Both the position numbers and the translations under genes were made by a program. DNA of 64,000 nucleotides from Gaiella occulta (GTDB lineage: Bacteria; Actinomycetota; Thermoleophilia; Gaiellales; Gaiellaceae), in NCBI RefSeq assembly GCF_003351045.1, contig NZ_QQZY01000002.1:370001-434000 (forward strand), read 5' to 3'. Shown here one piece after another: positions 13,350-60,741 of this stretch; positions within the stretch are counted from its first letter, which is position 1, and each line of letters begins with the position of its first letter. The notes below the pieces were generated by a model, which did no database searches, was not told where the DNA came from, and was given only the letters and a program-made list of their open reading frames with translations.

Positions 13350-14018
13350 ATGGATGCGCTCCTCGCCTTCGCCGCGACGCTCGTGTCGCTGCGCCTCAGC
13401 GCCGACCTGCTGCGCCGCTACCGCGCGCGGCGGGCGCCCGAGCACGCCGCCTGGGCCGCGTCGCTCGCCGCGTTCGCGCTCGGCTCGGGCGCGCTCGCCT
13501 GGGCTGCCGCGGCAGGGTGGGACGATCGCGCCTTTCGCGCCTACTACCTGTTCGGCGGCCTGCTCACTGCGGCGCTGCTCGGCGCCGGCTCGCTGCTGCG
13601 GGCCGGGGTGCGCTGGGCCGGCCCCGCGGCGCTCGTCTACACCGGCATCGCCGTCGGCGTGGCGATCGCGATGCCGCTGGCGGCTCCGGTCGGCGGCGGC
13701 TCGATCCCCGACGCGCAGGCGCATCTCGACCTCTTTCCGGCCAGGATGCTGGCGATCGCCGGCAACTCGGCCGGCACGCTCGCCGCGGTCGCGGTGGCCG
13801 CCGCGGGGCTGCGGCGGCGGCCGCTCGGGAACGGGCTCGTGCTCGCCGGGCTCGCGGTCGCGGCACTCGGGAGCGCGCTCGCGGGGCTCGGGGAGGCCGA
13901 GTCGGCGCTCTTCTCGGCCGCCGCGGCGGTGCTCCTGTATGTGGGATTCGTGCTCCCTACGCGTCCCGCATCGACGCCGGCGGGCGGCTCCGACGGGCGC
14001 GCCGCCGCCGCTCCCTGA
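13350..14018 (+). CDS. conserved membrane protein of unknown function
   Basis: Protein of 222 residues with about seven hydrophobic helices and no recognised catalytic motif. The N-terminus MDALLAFAATLVSLRLSADLL leads into repeated Ala/Leu/Gly helices. Only the loop around VGGGSIPDAQAHLDLFPARM is polar. TACGCT (13336-13341) lies 8 bases before the ATG. It diverges from the serine operon, and its 3' end overlaps the convergent small membrane protein at 13957-14127. I do not recognise the family. Confidence 0.75.
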   Translation: MDALLAFAATLVSLRLSADLLRRYRARRAPEHAAWAASLAAFALGSGALAWAAAAGWDDRAFRAYYLFGGLLTAALLGAGSLLRAGVRWAGPAALVYTGIAVGVAIAMPLAAPVGGGSIPDAQAHLDLFPARMLAIAGNSAGTLAAVAVAAAGLRRRPLGNGLVLAGLAVAALGSALAGLGEAESALFSAAAAVLLYVGFVLPTRPASTPAGGSDGRAAAAP

Positions 14019-14127
14019 GCCAGACGACGGCGAGCGCCACCGCGACGACGAGCGCGATCGAAGTCTCGGCGAGGAGGCCCGCCGTGCCGCCGTGGCCGAC
14101 GACGTCTAGCCTCGCGACAGCAGCCAC
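13957..14127 (-). CDS. small single-span membrane protein
   Basis: Possible 56-residue protein starting at GTG 14127, inside the last codons of the upstream membrane protein gene. It has one membrane helix (SIALVVAVALAVVWL) followed by a highly basic tail (RERRRRARRS). A tail of this kind fits an inside-positive topology. The overlap with the upstream gene suggests coupling, but its 3' part overlaps the convergent gene at 13350-14018. It could be spurious. Confidence 0.45.
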   Translation of the reverse strand: MAAVARLDVVGHGGTAGLLAETSIALVVAVALAVVWLRERRRRARRSRPPASMRDA

Positions 14128-15482
14128 AGGCCGGCGACCGTGTAGAGCACCATCAGCGCGAGCATCGCGTACTGGCTGCGCAGCGCGTCCGTGCGCGCCG
14201 CGAAGATCGCGACCGCGCGATCGTGGGCGACCGCGAGCCCCGCGACGTGCCCGAGCACGAGCGCGGCCGCCTGCACGTACCAGATCGTGTTCGGCGTCAG
14301 CGCCGCGAGGTTCGGAGCCACGTCCGCCGTCCCCAGCAGGTCCCATCCCTTGCCGAGCGGGTCGGAGAGCAAGGGGGCGAGGAACTGCCCTTGCAAGACG
14401 AAGAGGGAGAAGTAGTGGGCGACCTCGTAGACGAAGGCGATCGGCACGAGCGAGAGCGTGAACTCGTGCGCGAGCGTGCGCGGCGCGTTCACGGTCCAGC
14501 GGGCGAGCGCGCAGGCGCCGAGATAGGCGAGCCCGACGATCGCGACCGCACCGAGGAGCCCGGCGAGGTTGAGGCCGGTGGCGACGATCTCGCCGAGCCC
14601 GGGCCGATCGACGACGTAAGGGGCCTCGACGCGGGCGAGCAGGTCCTGCCAGGTCGTCGTACGGCTGAAGCCGTCGAAGCCCACGGTGCCGAGCGCGACG
14701 GCGATGAACGGCACCGAGCCCGCCAGAGACTCGCTGCCGCCGAGACCGGCGAGCGGCGGCCGCAGGGAGAGCCTCCCGTCCCGCGCGGCGAGCGGCGACA
14801 TCCGCGCGAGGTAGGCGAAGAGGATCGCGAACCCCTCCCCGCGTCCGCTCCACGTCTCGCGCCCGAACGCGGCCATGCCGAAGAGCGTGATGTACGTGTA
14901 GAGGGCGATCGCGAAGGCGAGCGCGCGCGGGCCAGACGGATCCGCGTAGGCGAGCTCGAGCGCGGCGAACGCGAACAGCGCCGCCGCGCCGGGCAGACGC
15001 CCGTAGCGTTCGGGATAGACGGCCAGCGGGCGGGCCTCGCGCCCGCTGCGCTCCCACGCCCACACGAACGCGTCCGCCAGCGCGCGCCACGGGCTGAAGG
15101 CGCGCCACACGTTCCCGAACAGGATCGAGAGAACCGGCATCCCGAGCCAGAACGCCACGTAGACCCACGTCGGCGCGAGGTTCTCGAGCGGATCCGTGCT
15201 GCCGAGGAGGGCGGCAGCGAAGACGAGCGCGAAGAGCGCCGCCGACGCCGCCTGCGCAACGACCCGCCCGGGCCCGAGCACGAGCCGCGAGAGGCGCCGC
15301 GGCAACGCGAGGCCGCCCGCGCGCCGGGCGAGCTGCGGCTCCCGCCAGAGCACGCCCAGCGCGACGAACGACGCGACGAGCACCGCCGCGCCGCCCCAGT
15401 AGAACAACCACCGCGGTACCGGGAGATCCTGGACGCCCCCGATCCCGTGCGCGAGCAGACGCGCGGACGGCACGAGGCTCAC
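14106..15482 (-). CDS. multi-span membrane protein, fenitrothion hydrolase-like by family resemblance
   Basis: Integral membrane protein of 458 residues with roughly ten helices, coupled by a 4-base GTGA overlap to the cupredoxin-like gene upstream. The polar loop FGNVWRAFSPWRALADAFVW and the segment GTVGFDGFSRTTTWQDLL are distinctive. From memory, similar proteins in actinobacterial genomes carry the name fenitrothion hydrolase, but no hydrolase motif is visible and the name may mislead. Pairing with a cupredoxin-like secreted protein suggests a copper or redox role; this is inference only. Confidence 0.6.
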   Translation of the reverse strand: MSLVPSARLLAHGIGGVQDLPVPRWLFYWGGAAVLVASFVALGVLWREPQLARRAGGLALPRRLSRLVLGPGRVVAQAASAALFALVFAAALLGSTDPLENLAPTWVYVAFWLGMPVLSILFGNVWRAFSPWRALADAFVWAWERSGREARPLAVYPERYGRLPGAAALFAFAALELAYADPSGPRALAFAIALYTYITLFGMAAFGRETWSGRGEGFAILFAYLARMSPLAARDGRLSLRPPLAGLGGSESLAGSVPFIAVALGTVGFDGFSRTTTWQDLLARVEAPYVVDRPGLGEIVATGLNLAGLLGAVAIVGLAYLGACALARWTVNAPRTLAHEFTLSLVPIAFVYEVAHYFSLFVLQGQFLAPLLSDPLGKGWDLLGTADVAPNLAALTPNTIWYVQAAALVLGHVAGLAVAHDRAVAIFAARTDALRSQYAMLALMVLYTVAGLWLLSRG

Positions 15483-15823
15483 GGTCTCACCGTGAGCCGG
15501 GCGAGCAGCGCGTCGGGCCGGTGCATCTCCAGCTCGAAGCGCCCGACCAGCCGCGCCCTGAACTGGATCACCGCCGGCTTGCCCTTCCGCAGCGGACGCT
15601 CGATGTCGTAGCCGTGGAGATGCACTTCCCGGCCGGCGTTCGAGGTGACGACGATGCGCACGAGCGTGCCCTTCCTGACGGTGGGGCGCCCGATGCCGCC
15701 GGCGGGGCGACCGTTCTCGACCCTGATCGGGATCACGACGGGCTTGACCGCCGAGGGTGCGGCGGCGGCCGCGAGCGGCGCGGCTACGGCCGCGACGACG
15801 AATGCGCACGCGAGTCGCTTCAT
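15479..15823 (-). CDS. secreted cupredoxin-like protein
   Basis: Protein of 114 residues with a clear signal peptide (MKRLACAFVVAAVAAPLAAA). The mature domain has cupredoxin-type strands: GTLVRIVVTSNAGREVHLHGYD and GRFELEMHR. Histidines and a methionine could bind copper, but the usual cysteine ligand of blue copper sites is absent, since the only Cys is in the signal peptide. A good Shine-Dalgarno (GGAGG) precedes the ATG at 15823. It overlaps the downstream membrane protein gene by 4 bases. Confidence 0.72.
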   Translation of the reverse strand: MKRLACAFVVAAVAAPLAAAAAPSAVKPVVIPIRVENGRPAGGIGRPTVRKGTLVRIVVTSNAGREVHLHGYDIERPLRKGKPAVIQFRARLVGRFELEMHRPDALLARLTVRP

Positions 15824-15880
15824 TGCAAATCCTCCAATATGCTCGTGTTTCCGCCGGCAGGCGGCGGCGTCGGCGTGGAG

Positions 15881-16402
15881 CTACCGGAGCATGGAGGGGG
15901 GCCCGCGGGCGGGGACGTTGCCGCGCGGAGCGTGGTCGGCGACGAGCGCGGGGCGCTCGAGCCAGGCGAGCGGGAGCAGCGCGAGCGCAGGCGGGAGCCG
16001 CCGCGGCTGCCTGCGAAGCCCCGTGAGGAGCCGGCGCGCGAGCAGCCAGAGGAGGACGGCGAGCGGAGCCTGCAACCCGAGGCCGAGCAGGAAGGTGGGC
16101 GTTGAGAGCAGGAACGGGAGGTCGCCCGTGTGGGCGATCCGCTCGACGTGCTCCTGCACGGCAAACGCCGTCGCGCCGAAGAGGGCGATCGGCAGCGGCG
16201 AGAACCGCTGCCTGCGACCCTCGGCGGCGGCGCCGAGCAGCGCCAGCAGCGCGACGACGGCGACGATCTGCGGCGCGTGCGCGAGGTAGTCGTGGCCGGA
16301 GCCGAGCGAGGCTCCCGTCAGCGCGTAGGCCGCTGCATGGCCGGCGAGCACGCCTACCGCCGCGAGCGGGACGATCAGGGCCCAGGCGAGACCACGGCGC
16401 AC
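15881..16402 (-). CDS. conserved membrane protein of unknown function
   Basis: Protein of 173 residues with about four membrane helices and polar histidines in the second and third (GSGHDYLAHAPQIVAV and FAVQEHVERIAHTGDLPF). The histidine-rich helix HVERIAH could bind metal, fitting its place directly upstream of the cupredoxin-like gene. The GTG at 16402 is preceded 6 bases upstream by TACACT (minus, 16409-16414), so it probably heads the transcript of this three- or four-gene cluster. The family is not recognised. Confidence 0.7.
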   Translation of the reverse strand: MRRGLAWALIVPLAAVGVLAGHAAAYALTGASLGSGHDYLAHAPQIVAVVALLALLGAAAEGRRQRFSPLPIALFGATAFAVQEHVERIAHTGDLPFLLSTPTFLLGLGLQAPLAVLLWLLARRLLTGLRRQPRRLPPALALLPLAWLERPALVADHAPRGNVPARGPPSMLR

Positions 16403-53262: not shown

Positions 53263-53335
53263 AGGGGCGTAGCTCAATTGGCAGAGCACCGGTCTCCAAA
53301 ACCGGGGGTTGCAGGTTCGAGTCCTGCCGCCCCTG
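53263..53335 (+). tRNA. tRNA-Trp (CCA)
   Basis: Cloverleaf: acceptor AGGGGCG pairs with CGCCCCT (53328-53334), anticodon stem CCGGT/ACCGG encloses CTCCAAA with anticodon CCA, T arm GCAGG/CCTGC around TTCGAGT, discriminator G. CCA is not encoded. It marks the left edge of the 53.3-60.4 kb island. Confidence 0.96.
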
Positions 53336-53535
53336 CTGCGAATGGCCCCGCAGGACAGGGGGTTTTCCCCTCTCGGACGCTGGCGCGTTCGGAGCTCGGA
53401 CTGGCACAGGATCGATACACGAACTCCAGGCCAGACGGCGCCGGATGGCGACAGGCCTCTGAGATGCACGGACCGAAGGGGTTACGCCGTCGTGGCCGGA
53501 CGCGCATACTGGAGCCACAAGGAGAGGGAGGAGAG

Positions 53536-53736: not shown

Positions 53737-54000
53737 ATGCCGACGTTGTCGTCGGCGAACACAGGTAGGTACGCGACGACCGCGCAGATGCAGGCCGCGT
53801 CCACGTGCGGCACGCGTTCGACCGGCACCTCGGCGAGAGCGGCTCCTACCCGCTCGTGCGGCCGAAGTCCCACGCCTCGCGCCGGGACGTGCCGCTTTCC
53901 GACGACGCCGAGCGAATGGCCGGCACCGGGCCGCGGCCGGCAACCCGCCCGAAGGGACGCTCGTGCTCTCGGACGCGCGCCGACGGCCGCTCCCCACTCC
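53737..54000 (+). pseudogene. tyrosine recombinase (integrase) remnant
   Basis: Two frames hold integrase-like sequence: RHAFDRHLGESGSYPLVRPK then SHASRRDVPLSDDAERM (from about 53805), and after a shift EGTLVLSDARRRPLPTPR (to about 54003). The PLVRPKSHASRRDVPLSD block is typical of the catalytic domain of phage-type integrases. The N-terminus and the catalytic Tyr box are gone. Location beside tRNA-Trp suggests a tRNA-targeted element once integrated here. Confidence 0.55.
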
Positions 54001-54052
54001 CCGCGTCCCGGCCGCCGAGATCACGTACGGCCCACGGGCGTACGCTGCGCCG

Positions 54053-54285
54053 ATGGACACCCCGCCTGCTGAGCTGGACAAGGACGCCGTCGGCGAGAAG
54101 TTCGCCGCCCAGTTCGAGGTGGCCGAGAACCTGCCGCGTACGCCTGGACACACCAGCCGCGCGGCCGCGCCGCGGGCGGGAAGCTGTACCGCTTGCTGAT
54201 CTTCGCCATCTTCGCCCGCGCCACCCTCACTTACCGCGCCGTACTGCACCTGTGCCGCGGGGGCTACACCGAGCAGGCGGACAGC
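54053..54285 (+). pseudogene. 5' half of a DUF5677-like gene interrupted by the restriction operon
   Basis: From ATG 54053 (6 bases after TACGCT 54041-54046) the frame reads ELDKDAVGEKFAAQFEVAEN. After a shift near 54140 it continues AYAWTHQPRGRAAGGKLYRL and RAVLHLCRGGYTEQAD, typical of DUF5677 proteins. There it breaks off at the end of the island operon. The missing continuation, SLFEDMAYAHW, is found at 59138. Confidence 0.5.
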
Positions 54286-54288
54286 GCT

Positions 54289-59091
<4,803 letters not shown>

Positions 59092-59131
59092 ACGGTCAGC
59101 CTAGTGCCGAGCCCCGACAGTATGGTGTCCA

Positions 59132-59402
59132 CTCCACTCGCTGTTCGAGGATATGGCGTACGCCCACTGGATCTCCATGCCCGAGCACCAGGAGGAAGCG
59201 ATTGTTCACCTACGGCCGGATCACCCGCCTTCTGCTCTCGGAGACAGGCGGCAAGGTCGAGGAGTTCGACGACTTCTACCGCCGGCAGCTCGACTTGCTC
59301 ACCAAGCTTGCCCAGTCCAAGCGGGACAGGAACCAAATCAGCCGCAACGATCAGTGCCCGTGCGGCTGCGGCAAGAAGTACAAGAACTGCCACGGCGGGT
59401 AG
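59132..59402 (+). pseudogene. 3' half of the interrupted DUF5677-like gene, with SEC-C motif
   Basis: From 59138 the frame reads SLFEDMAYAHWISMPEHQEE, the expected continuation of the fragment at 54053-54285. A shift near 59200 leads to FTYGRITRLLLSETGGKVEE and the C-terminal SEC-C zinc motif RNDQCPCGCGKKYKNCHGG, ending at 59402. The two halves flank the restriction-like operon on either side. Confidence 0.55.
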
Positions 59403-59425
59403 CCACGGCAGAGCTACGCGTATGG

Positions 59426-59725
59426 CTACGCGACGCTGGCCGGCTCGCGGACGAGGGCGAGTCGGGCACCAAGCGCGCCACTGAGCGCCTCAATGGTGGC
59501 CTTCGTGGGGTTCGCGACGCCGCGCTCTATGCGGCTGATCTCGCTTTGCGGGATCCCGGACATCTTGGCGAGTTCCTTCTGTGTCAGCTCGTGCTCGCGC
59601 CGCAACTCGAGGAGCTGGTAGGCCAGGTCGTAGTGCTCCCGGAAGGCGTCCAGGGTCGCGCGGCCCTCCTCGCTGAGGTTCGCCTCGACGTTCTTGACGT
59701 AGTCCTTGAAGTTGGTGGTTGCCAT
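59426..59725 (-). CDS. XRE-family antitoxin (HigA-like)
   Basis: Protein of 99 residues with a C-terminal helix-turn-helix: LRREHELTQKELAKMSGIPQ then SEISRIERGVANPTKATIEA. The N-terminal 35 residues are the toxin-neutralising part by analogy. The palindrome at 59756-59775 lies just upstream, so it probably represses its own promoter. The toxin gene is upstream of it, the reverse of the classical order but typical of HigBA. Confidence 0.88.
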   Translation of the reverse strand: MATTNFKDYVKNVEANLSEEGRATLDAFREHYDLAYQLLELRREHELTQKELAKMSGIPQSEISRIERGVANPTKATIEALSGALGARLALVREPASVA

Positions 59726-59755
59726 TGGTGCCCCCTTCGTCATAGCCCAACCACA

Positions 59756-59775
59756 GTATGGGGTAAACCCCATAC
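59756..59775. promoter_or_regulatory. perfect 8-bp inverted repeat, HigA-type operator
   Basis: GTATGGGG-TAAA-CCCCATAC lies between the toxin stop (59790) and the antitoxin start (59725). A TACTGT hexamer on the minus strand (about 59752-59757) overlaps its edge and could be the antitoxin's own -10 box. Confidence 0.7.
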
Positions 59776-59789
59776 GCGGCGCAACTCTA

Positions 59790-60341
59790 TCATCGGCGCC
59801 GGCGCCGATTCCTTGAGGGCTGCTTTGGAGGCGCCTCGCCCCGGCGCTGGGCCTCCTTCTTCTCCCGCGCTTCCCTGATCTGAAGCTCCTTGAGGCGCTT
59901 CCGGGCGTTCTCGATCTCCTTCTGTTGCCGGCGAGGACTCGGATCCTCGCCCTTGTCGTAGCCTCCGAGGATGAGCAGGATCTTGCCGCCGGGACGAAGG
60001 TGGCAGAAGGCCCGCAGGACGATCTTGGTCGGAGACTTCTTCGCCTTCTCGCCGCGCCTACTGACGACTTCGGCCGCAACCTTCGCCCCGAGTTCCGGCT
60101 GCTCGGGAAACATCGCCTTGATCTCTTCGAGGGTATGACGGACGCGGAACTCGAAGATTGAAGCGCCGAGCTTCCTTCCCCACTCCGAGCCGCATACCCC
60201 CGGCCCAAGCTTGACAAGAATCCGCTCGGTCGCAGCGATCATCGCGAGCCGCTTCGGCTCGTTGAGCTTGTCGAGCCACTCGCGAAAGGGCACGCGCCCG
60301 TTCACGTCGGCGTAGAACTCGATCTCCAACTCGTCTGCCAC
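59790..60341 (-). CDS. RelE/HigB-like (Gp49-type) toxin
   Basis: Protein of 183 residues. The N-terminal 120 carry the phage Gp49/HigB pattern: EIEFYADVNGRVPFREWLDK, LGASIFEFRVRHTLEEIKA and KIVLRAFCHLRPGGKILLIL. Relatives cleave mRNA on the ribosome. A lysine/arginine-rich helical tail (KEIENARKRLKELQ to the end RNRRRRR) is longer than usual. The GTG at 60341 lies 6 bases after TATCCT (minus, 60348-60353), so it is leaderless. Confidence 0.82.
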   Translation of the reverse strand: MADELEIEFYADVNGRVPFREWLDKLNEPKRLAMIAATERILVKLGPGVCGSEWGRKLGASIFEFRVRHTLEEIKAMFPEQPELGAKVAAEVVSRRGEKAKKSPTKIVLRAFCHLRPGGKILLILGGYDKGEDPSPRRQQKEIENARKRLKELQIREAREKKEAQRRGEAPPKQPSRNRRRRR

Positions 60342-60353
60342 GAAGCGAGGATA

Positions 60354-60741
60354 GGGACCGATGCGGGCGGAGCCGCGAGGGTGCGTATGCAAGTCGGCGC
60401 TGAAGAGCGTCCTCGGCTGCGCGTGAGCCCGCGGCTGATCGCAGCTGGCCCTGCCGATCGTAATCTGGCGGCTCTTTCACGGCTGCAGGGTTGCAGATGC
60501 CGGCCGGAGGGCGATACTGAGACATGCGCGACCGCCCGCTGCGGTCGCGGAAGGCCGAGCAACGTTTGGGGAGACGGGTGATCGGGCGGCGGCCGCGCGC
60601 TGGGGGAGCATCAACCGACCGTGAGGGGACGCGAACGCGCGTGCCTGGACGGCTGCCGGCGCCCGCGAGGCCGGCCCGCTCGCGCCGGAGATCGTCTCCG
60701 CCGGCACGCGCTCGCTCCGCGCAGCGCCCGAGGACGAGTTC
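60354..60741. other. 388-base stretch without a convincing gene
   Basis: An arginine-rich frame from ATG 60524 to 60745 ends with a GTGA overlap at the next gene and has GATACT just upstream, but its composition is that of a shadow frame. Nothing else with protein character is seen on either strand. Confidence 0.4.

What the first reader, a model, noticed from the sequence alone, without database searches (positions are those of the whole stretch)
13957..16402. Uncharacterised membrane and cupredoxin-like gene cluster
A His-containing membrane protein, a secreted cupredoxin-like protein lacking the usual Cys ligand and a large multi-span protein (named after fenitrothion hydrolase in some genomes, from memory) are adjacent on one strand, the last two overlapping by 4 bases. 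A small one-span protein may follow. The arrangement suggests a copper-handling or membrane redox unit rather than pesticide hydrolysis.
Basis: inference. Interest (0 to 1): 0.5.

Follow-up and report, generated by a model that had tools for sequence, protein, structure and literature searches.

The report
Unnamed bacterial copper-handling membrane unit
Four neighbouring genes in an actinobacterium appear to form a copper-capture unit built around a widespread, never-named membrane protein that seems to do the job of a known copper importer with a different predicted shape.

Summary
In detail: A (173 aa, about 4 spans), B (114 aa secreted cupredoxin without the Cys ligand), C (458 aa, about 10 spans, 4-base overlap with B) and a small one-span D lie on the minus strand between gatB and an aminotransferase/serA. 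B-C linkage is phylum-wide: 48 of 56 strong B matches sit directly 5' of a C. C matches no Pfam or NCBIfam model (66 members scanned), no PDB sequence, and its confident AlphaFold model (pLDDT 94) has no PDB fold match. Every C keeps four His; in 45 of 45 members with a long N-terminus the first is predicted to become the mature N-terminal residue, as in CopC-type Cu(II) proteins. Related loci carry SCO1, YcnI/DUF1775, CopCD or CtaG within 5 kb (33 of 80). In four related genomes CopC takes B's place, once with the same 4-base overlap; one locus runs CopC-C-...-A-YcnI. Best reading: an extracytoplasmic Cu(II)-capture and membrane import or delivery unit in which C stands where CopD stands in YcnJ. 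Copper binding and transport are inferred, not shown; iron or haem redox remain possible. The name 'fenitrothion hydrolase' was not found on any relative listed.

The parts
15881..16402 (-). Gene A: 173 aa, about 4 membrane spans; invariant H22, H37, E84, E87 (predicted outer side, inference) and a C-terminal R-x-P-P
   Evidence: 11 rows; no Pfam/NCBIfam match above cut-off; 5' of C in 18 of 71 named loci with enough flank
15479..15823 (-). Gene B: 114 aa secreted cupredoxin-fold protein, HxHGYD motif, invariant E99, no Cys in the mature part
   Evidence: 43 rows; AlphaFold pLDDT 91.7; Foldseek to EfeO, FtrB, CuA domains, CupA, Cupredoxin_1
15605..15622 (-). B residues 68-73, HLHGYD, in the first cupredoxin ligand loop
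   Evidence: H68, H70, G71 invariant in 43 rows; loop aligned with that of nitrosocyanin
14106..15482 (-). Gene C: 458 aa, about 10 membrane spans, N-terminus out (inference); unnamed family with no known fold match
15479..15482 (-). 4-base overlap of B stop and C start
   Evidence: sequence
15447..15449 (-). C codon H12, the invariant N-terminal His (predicted mature residue 1 in relatives with a long N-terminus)
   Evidence: 66 of 66 rows; [AVSGT]xA directly before it in 45 of 45 long N-termini
14415..14417 (-). C codon H356 (AHY), helix 338-365
   Evidence: invariant in 66 rows and in 11 rows including proteobacteria and haloarchaea
14223..14249 (-). C codons H412 to H420 (GHVxxLxxAH), helix 397-426
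   Evidence: both His invariant in 66 rows and 11 rows
13957..14127 (-). Gene D: 56 aa, one span, HGG motif before the span; overlaps the end of C
   Evidence: tblastn relatives in place in L031, L034, L041; a small LAHxGH one-span ORF follows C on its strand in 24 of 78 named loci, linked to the window's D by position and motif only

Best explanation
A-B-C-D is an extracytoplasmic copper acquisition unit. Shown: a co-directional, partly overlapping gene set whose B-C core is conserved across Actinomycetota and whose large protein C is also found in proteobacteria and haloarchaea; B has a predicted cupredoxin fold; C is a multi-span protein with an invariant N-terminal His and three invariant membrane His; copper genes cluster round it in relatives, and CopC replaces B in some. 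Inferred: B (HxH, Glu) captures Cu(II) outside the cell and passes it to the outer-face site of C (N-terminal His, with E176, D270, H356 towards the outer side of the membrane); C moves it inward past H412 to H420-D421 near the inner face, or hands it to membrane cuproenzymes (cytochrome oxidase; copper monooxygenase in some mycobacteria); A and D add outer-face His/Glu sites. C thus works like the CopD part of YcnJ, with an N-terminal His of its own, but is not a CopD by sequence.
For: Linkage: 48 of 56 B matches (E<=1e-10) directly 5' of C in 47 genomes; 45 of 64 full-length C have B. Copper company: SCO1 within 5 kb of C 5 pairs against 0.13 expected, CopC 5 against 0.33; SCO1, YcnI, CtaG or CopCD within 5 kb in 33 of 80 named loci, 18 of 40 with full flanks; Pfam identity of representatives. 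Displacement: CopC directly 5' of C in four genomes where no adjacent B was found, with an ATGA overlap in L186; L183 reads CopC-C-small protein-GNAT-A-YcnI. Plasmid relatives: hmoCAB copper monooxygenase, CopC plus cytochrome oxidase genes, PCu(A)C, heavy-metal P-type ATPase, multicopper oxidase and plastocyanin. Ligands: H12, H356, H412, H420 in 66 of 66 C, the last three in 11 of 11 across phyla; predicted mature N-terminal His in 45 of 45 with long N-termini; B HxH and E99 invariant; A H22, H37, E84, E87 invariant. Fold of B.
Against: No metal was measured. The window's own flanks (gatCAB, aminotransferase, serA) hold no copper gene. 8 of 17 annotated plasmid contexts show no metal gene; three of four annotated alphaproteobacterial ones lie by nicotinate/molybdopterin dehydrogenase and ABC-transporter genes. 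The CtaG link alone is not significant (2 against 0.39). The window's C has only 11 residues before H12 and no signal peptide, so its His is not a freed N-terminus. Haloarchaeal relatives sit near DUF7350/Iron_transport proteins, and B's best fold matches include iron-uptake cupredoxins EfeO and FtrB. Side-chain distances in the model of C were not available to me.
Confidence: 0.6

Rival explanations
1. C is an assembly factor that inserts copper into cytochrome oxidase or copper monooxygenase at the membrane, without importing it.
For: SCO1 and CtaG neighbours; hmoCAB; oxidase subunit III and assembly gene in M. gallinarum.
Against: Only 1 of 80 C-bearing genomes has an AMO-family gene, on another contig; oxidase structural genes are not regular neighbours in the clusters.
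Confidence: 0.25
2. The unit handles iron (or several metals): B is an FtrB/EfeO-like cupredoxin and C an iron permease.
For: Foldseek ranks EfeO and FtrB first and second for B; haloarchaeal C loci lie near proteins with the Iron_transport domain PF10634; a Dyp peroxidase near one (88).
Against: Neighbours in Actinomycetota are copper genes; CopC, a Cu(II) protein, replaces B. Motifs of known iron permeases were not looked for.
Confidence: 0.12
3. C is a membrane haem or redox protein whose invariant His ligate haem b, and B/A/D feed it electrons.
For: H356, H412 and H420 lie on neighbouring predicted helices; redoxin-like, SCO1 and VKOR genes occur near C.
Against: By helix position H356 and H412 lie about six residues apart in depth and H420 deeper (inference), which does not suit one bis-His haem; no cytochrome fold match was listed.
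Confidence: 0.12
4. C is a fenitrothion (organophosphate) hydrolase.
Against: No annotated relative listed bears the name; no hydrolase family match in 66 members; searches found only three papers with the phrase, none on this gene by title (listings only).
Confidence: 0.01

Closest known systems
YcnJ/YcnI copper uptake system of Bacillus subtilis (CopC-CopD-YtkA fusion plus DUF1775 protein)
   Same: Extracytoplasmic Cu(II)-binding partner plus multi-span membrane protein; CopC and YcnI genes occur beside C in relatives. YcnJ needs a CopC histidine brace and a second putative copper site in the membrane domain (abstracts of PMC12154828, PMC13344008).
   Different: C has no CopD domain by Pfam (66 members) or profile comparison; B is a cupredoxin, not CopC; A and D have no counterpart known to me.
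CtaG (Caa3_CtaG, PF09678) oxidase assembly membrane proteins
   Same: Multi-span, actinobacterial, found next to C in some loci
   Different: No Pfam match and no profile similarity
Cupredoxins lacking the blue-copper Cys: Cupredoxin_1, FtrB, EfeO N-domain, CupA, nitrosocyanin-like loop
   Same: Fold of B; first ligand loop position; 17 of 43 B family members hit Cupredoxin_1 weakly
   Different: HxHGYD plus invariant Glu, no C-H-M loop; fixed partner of C. (Nitrosocyanin itself does have a Cys ligand; recalled.)
sco operon of Streptomyces lividans (Sco with two other copper genes)
   Same: Actinobacterial copper chaperone gene set serving oxidase (abstract of PMC3603459)
   Different: A Sco gene is only a neighbour of C in some relatives, absent from the window unit

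Membership tests
CopD (PF05425) | Sequence match of C to the CopD domain | tested here: not met
   No CopD among families matched by 66 members; hhalign with four CopCD proteins E 0.18
CopD / YcnJ-type importer (works like) | Genetic partnership with CopC and YcnI | tested here: met
   CopC directly 5' of C in L183, L185, L186 and YcnI in L183 by Pfam; L184 by whole-genome search. Met in relatives, not in the window itself
CopD / YcnJ-type importer (works like) | Copper transport across the membrane | not testable with these tools
   needs an uptake assay
CtaG (PF09678) | Sequence match of C | tested here: not met
Cupredoxin fold (B) | Greek-key beta sandwich of the cupredoxin type | tested here: met
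   AlphaFold pLDDT 91.7; 59 PDB matches at E<=0.001, the 50 listed being proteins with cupredoxin-type domains by name
Type 1 (blue) copper protein (B) | His-Cys-His(-Met) ligand set | tested here: not met
   no Cys in mature B; of possible ligands only the HxH loop and E99 are invariant
Histidine-brace copper proteins (C) | Mature N-terminal His | tested here: inconclusive
   predicted in 45 of 66; the window copy has no signal peptide
Histidine-brace copper proteins (C) | Second His ligand next to the N-terminal one, Cu(II) bound | not testable with these tools
   coordinates of the model not available
Known membrane fold in the PDB (C) | Structural match | tested here: inconclusive
   Foldseek best E 0.027 with TM 0.13; VIA-align best Z 8.1 (rmsd 5.4, 128 aligned) to a helical domain
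Fenitrothion hydrolase | Hydrolysis of fenitrothion | not testable with these tools
   no annotated relative listed bears the name

The most novel reading that the evidence does not exclude
C founds a new family, and perhaps a new membrane fold, of copper importers spread over Actinomycetota, Pseudomonadota and haloarchaea, that takes Cu(II) at a mature N-terminal histidine and passes it along a ladder of transmembrane histidines, with interchangeable outside donors (B cupredoxin or CopC).
Probability: 0.35. Interest if true: 0.8.

Novelty: new variant of a known kind. Interest (0 to 1): 0.6.

Why it matters
Bacterial copper import is poorly defined (abstract of PMC13344008). A 450-residue family present in 82 of 396 sampled genomes of the phylum has no name in Pfam or NCBIfam, yet keeps the company of SCO1, CopC, YcnI and, in two mycobacteria, the copper hydrocarbon monooxygenase. 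If it imports or delivers copper it supplies a missing part for copper enzymes in many actinobacteria, and gives a direct knock-out test. It would also correct a pesticide-hydrolase label, if that label is in use.

Tried and rejected
Pfam and NCBIfam on A-E and on all 66 C: nothing above cut-off for A-E and only scattered chance-level scores for C. Homology of C with CtaG and CopD by hhalign: none. PDB sequence search with the C profile: none up to E 1. PDB fold search with C: no match; the VIA-align rows are talin-like and other helical bundles and membrane proteins at Z up to 8.1, within what its own note calls common. AMO/PmoA as a general partner: only 1 of 80 genomes, other contig, so the monooxygenase link is a special case. 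CtaG linkage alone: not significant. Paper searches for the label and for the family: fenitrothion hydrolase + gene cluster, 0 papers; fenitrothion hydrolase, 3; fenitrothion, fedA, fedB, 13, none relevant by title; none describes this family as far as the listings show. Passages on hmoCAB in PMC8784404 and on H. mediterranei copper genes in PMC9240420 do not mention these genes in the passages shown. Motifs of iron permeases were not tested.

The linkage statistics assume a flat genome size of 3.6 Mb and independent genomes; the SCO1 pairs come from four genomes of one class and four of the five CopC pairs from one family, so the P values overstate independence. For one search I left the weakest, mostly fragmentary C places out of the list; C fragments under 1150 bases were left out of the 64. 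Searches used 80 of the 82 C-bearing genomes. Gene calls beside C come from a simple codon-usage script of mine, not a standard gene finder; two of 80 named loci (L118, L128) gave no C gene call and were left out of the 78.

Full report
What is there. The window is part of a Gaiella-like genome (G000; the closest named relatives are Gaiella sp. and other Thermoleophilia). On the minus strand, after gatB (ends 16437), come A (16402..15881), B (15823..15479), C (15482..14106) and D (14127..13957); then a divergent 222-aa membrane protein (13350..14018 +), an aminotransferase and serA (gatB, aminotransferase and serA named by eye). B and C overlap by 4 bases.

Conservation of order. In the 20 relatives' stretches fetched, B lies 5' of C in 14 and A by tblastn in 7; one of these (L031) repeats the entire order gatA-gatB-A-B-C-D-(divergent E)-aminotransferase-serA. 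B and C stay together away from gatB. Over 80 C-bearing genomes of the phylum, 48 of 56 B matches at E<=1e-10 lie directly 5' of a C, and 45 of 64 full-length C have such a B. Among 80 named loci, B lies within 600 bases 5' in 40 of 76 with enough flank, A within 1.5 kb in 18 of 71.

The proteins. C has no Pfam or NCBIfam match in 66 members beyond chance-level scores, no PDB relative by profile, and an AlphaFold model of high confidence (pLDDT 94.1, pTM 0.91, residues 1-15 low) without a PDB fold match. From helices and charges of the loops I read ten spans with both ends outside (inference). Invariant polar residues in 66 rows include H12, E176, D270, H356, Q366, Q404, H412, H420, D421 and Q437; no Cys is among the invariant columns and the only Met is M444, which suits Cu(II) rather than Cu(I) (inference). 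H356, H412 and H420 persist in 11 of 11 relatives from actinobacteria, alpha- and betaproteobacteria and haloarchaea. In 45 of 45 members with 15 or more alignment letters before the invariant His, a signal-peptidase-like [AVSGT]xA stands exactly before that His; one residue off it is 3 of 45 and 0 of 45 (two residues earlier it is 32 of 45, from alternating Ala). The other 21, the window's among them, have short N-termini. B is a cupredoxin by model and fold search with invariant H68, H70, G71, G94, E99 in 43 rows and without the Cys-His-Met loop. A has invariant H22, H37, E84, E87 and a C-terminal RxPP in 11 rows.

Company in relatives. Gene clusters beside C in the named loci were identified by Pfam on representatives: SCO1-SenC, DUF1775 (YcnI), Caa3_CtaG, CopC-CopD, VKOR. 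At least one of SCO1, YcnI, CtaG, CopCD lies within 5 kb in 33 of 80 loci, or 18 of the 40 with 5 kb on both sides. Against whole-genome copy numbers in 80 genomes, SCO1 (5 pairs against 0.13) and CopC (5 against 0.33) are enriched, CtaG (2 against 0.39) is not. In four genomes CopC is directly 5' of C on the same strand where no adjacent B was found; I fetched all four: L183, L185 and L186 show CopC by Pfam, L186 with a 4-base ATGA overlap, and L183 continues C - small LAH..GGPD protein - GNAT - A relative - YcnI. So CopC and B occupy one slot. These C keep E176, D270, H356, H412 and H420 at 27-28% identity to the window's C.

Plasmid relatives. A tblastn search found 54 plasmid records with C relatives. 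I opened 18 regions; 17 had annotation. Seven show copper genes: hmoCAB monooxygenase in M. dioxanotrophicus and M. chubuense NBB4, CopC with oxidase genes in M. gallinarum, PCu(A)C in Sulfitobacter, heavy-metal P-type ATPase in Haloferax mediterranei and Haloarcula, multicopper oxidase and plastocyanin in Halobaculum. Two more show an 'iron transporter' (Haladaptatus, Halorientalis). Eight show none. The window genome itself carries CtaG, CopC and SCO1 elsewhere, not near this unit.

Reading. The four genes most likely capture Cu(II) outside and pass it to or through C. What it works like: YcnI/YcnJ, where an outside Cu(II) protein exchanges metal with a membrane importer and supports oxidases under copper limitation (abstracts of PMC12154828 and PMC13344008). 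What it is: not CopD and not CtaG by sequence. Shown are linkage, predicted folds and conserved residues; metal, direction of transport and client are inferred.

Noticed in passing
window 53800-60400: GC falls to 0.62-0.64 beside tRNA-Trp (53263-53336); ORFs read like a helicase, DNA methyltransferases and a HigB/HigA-like pair (by eye), i.e. a probable mobile or defence island.
   Followed up: no
window 13350-14018 (+): 222-aa multi-span protein of no Pfam family, divergent to the unit; a relative lies between C and the aminotransferase on the opposite strand in near relatives (cluster in 7 of 78 named loci).
   Followed up: partly
L066, L081, L088 and others: A 247-aa redoxin-like protein (19 named loci) and a secreted 240-aa protein of no family (13 loci) recur beside C in Solirubrobacterales.
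   Followed up: partly
L164, L165, L171: Alphaproteobacterial C relatives sit by nicotinate/molybdopterin dehydrogenase or 6-hydroxynicotinate reductase genes and branched-chain ABC transporters, unexplained by the copper reading.
   Followed up: no
L183 1804-2322 (-), L185, L186: Small protein after C with LAH..GGPD start, one span and, in L183, an outer GHLHIYVDG-type domain; its place recalls the YtkA domain of YcnJ, resemblance only.
   Followed up: no
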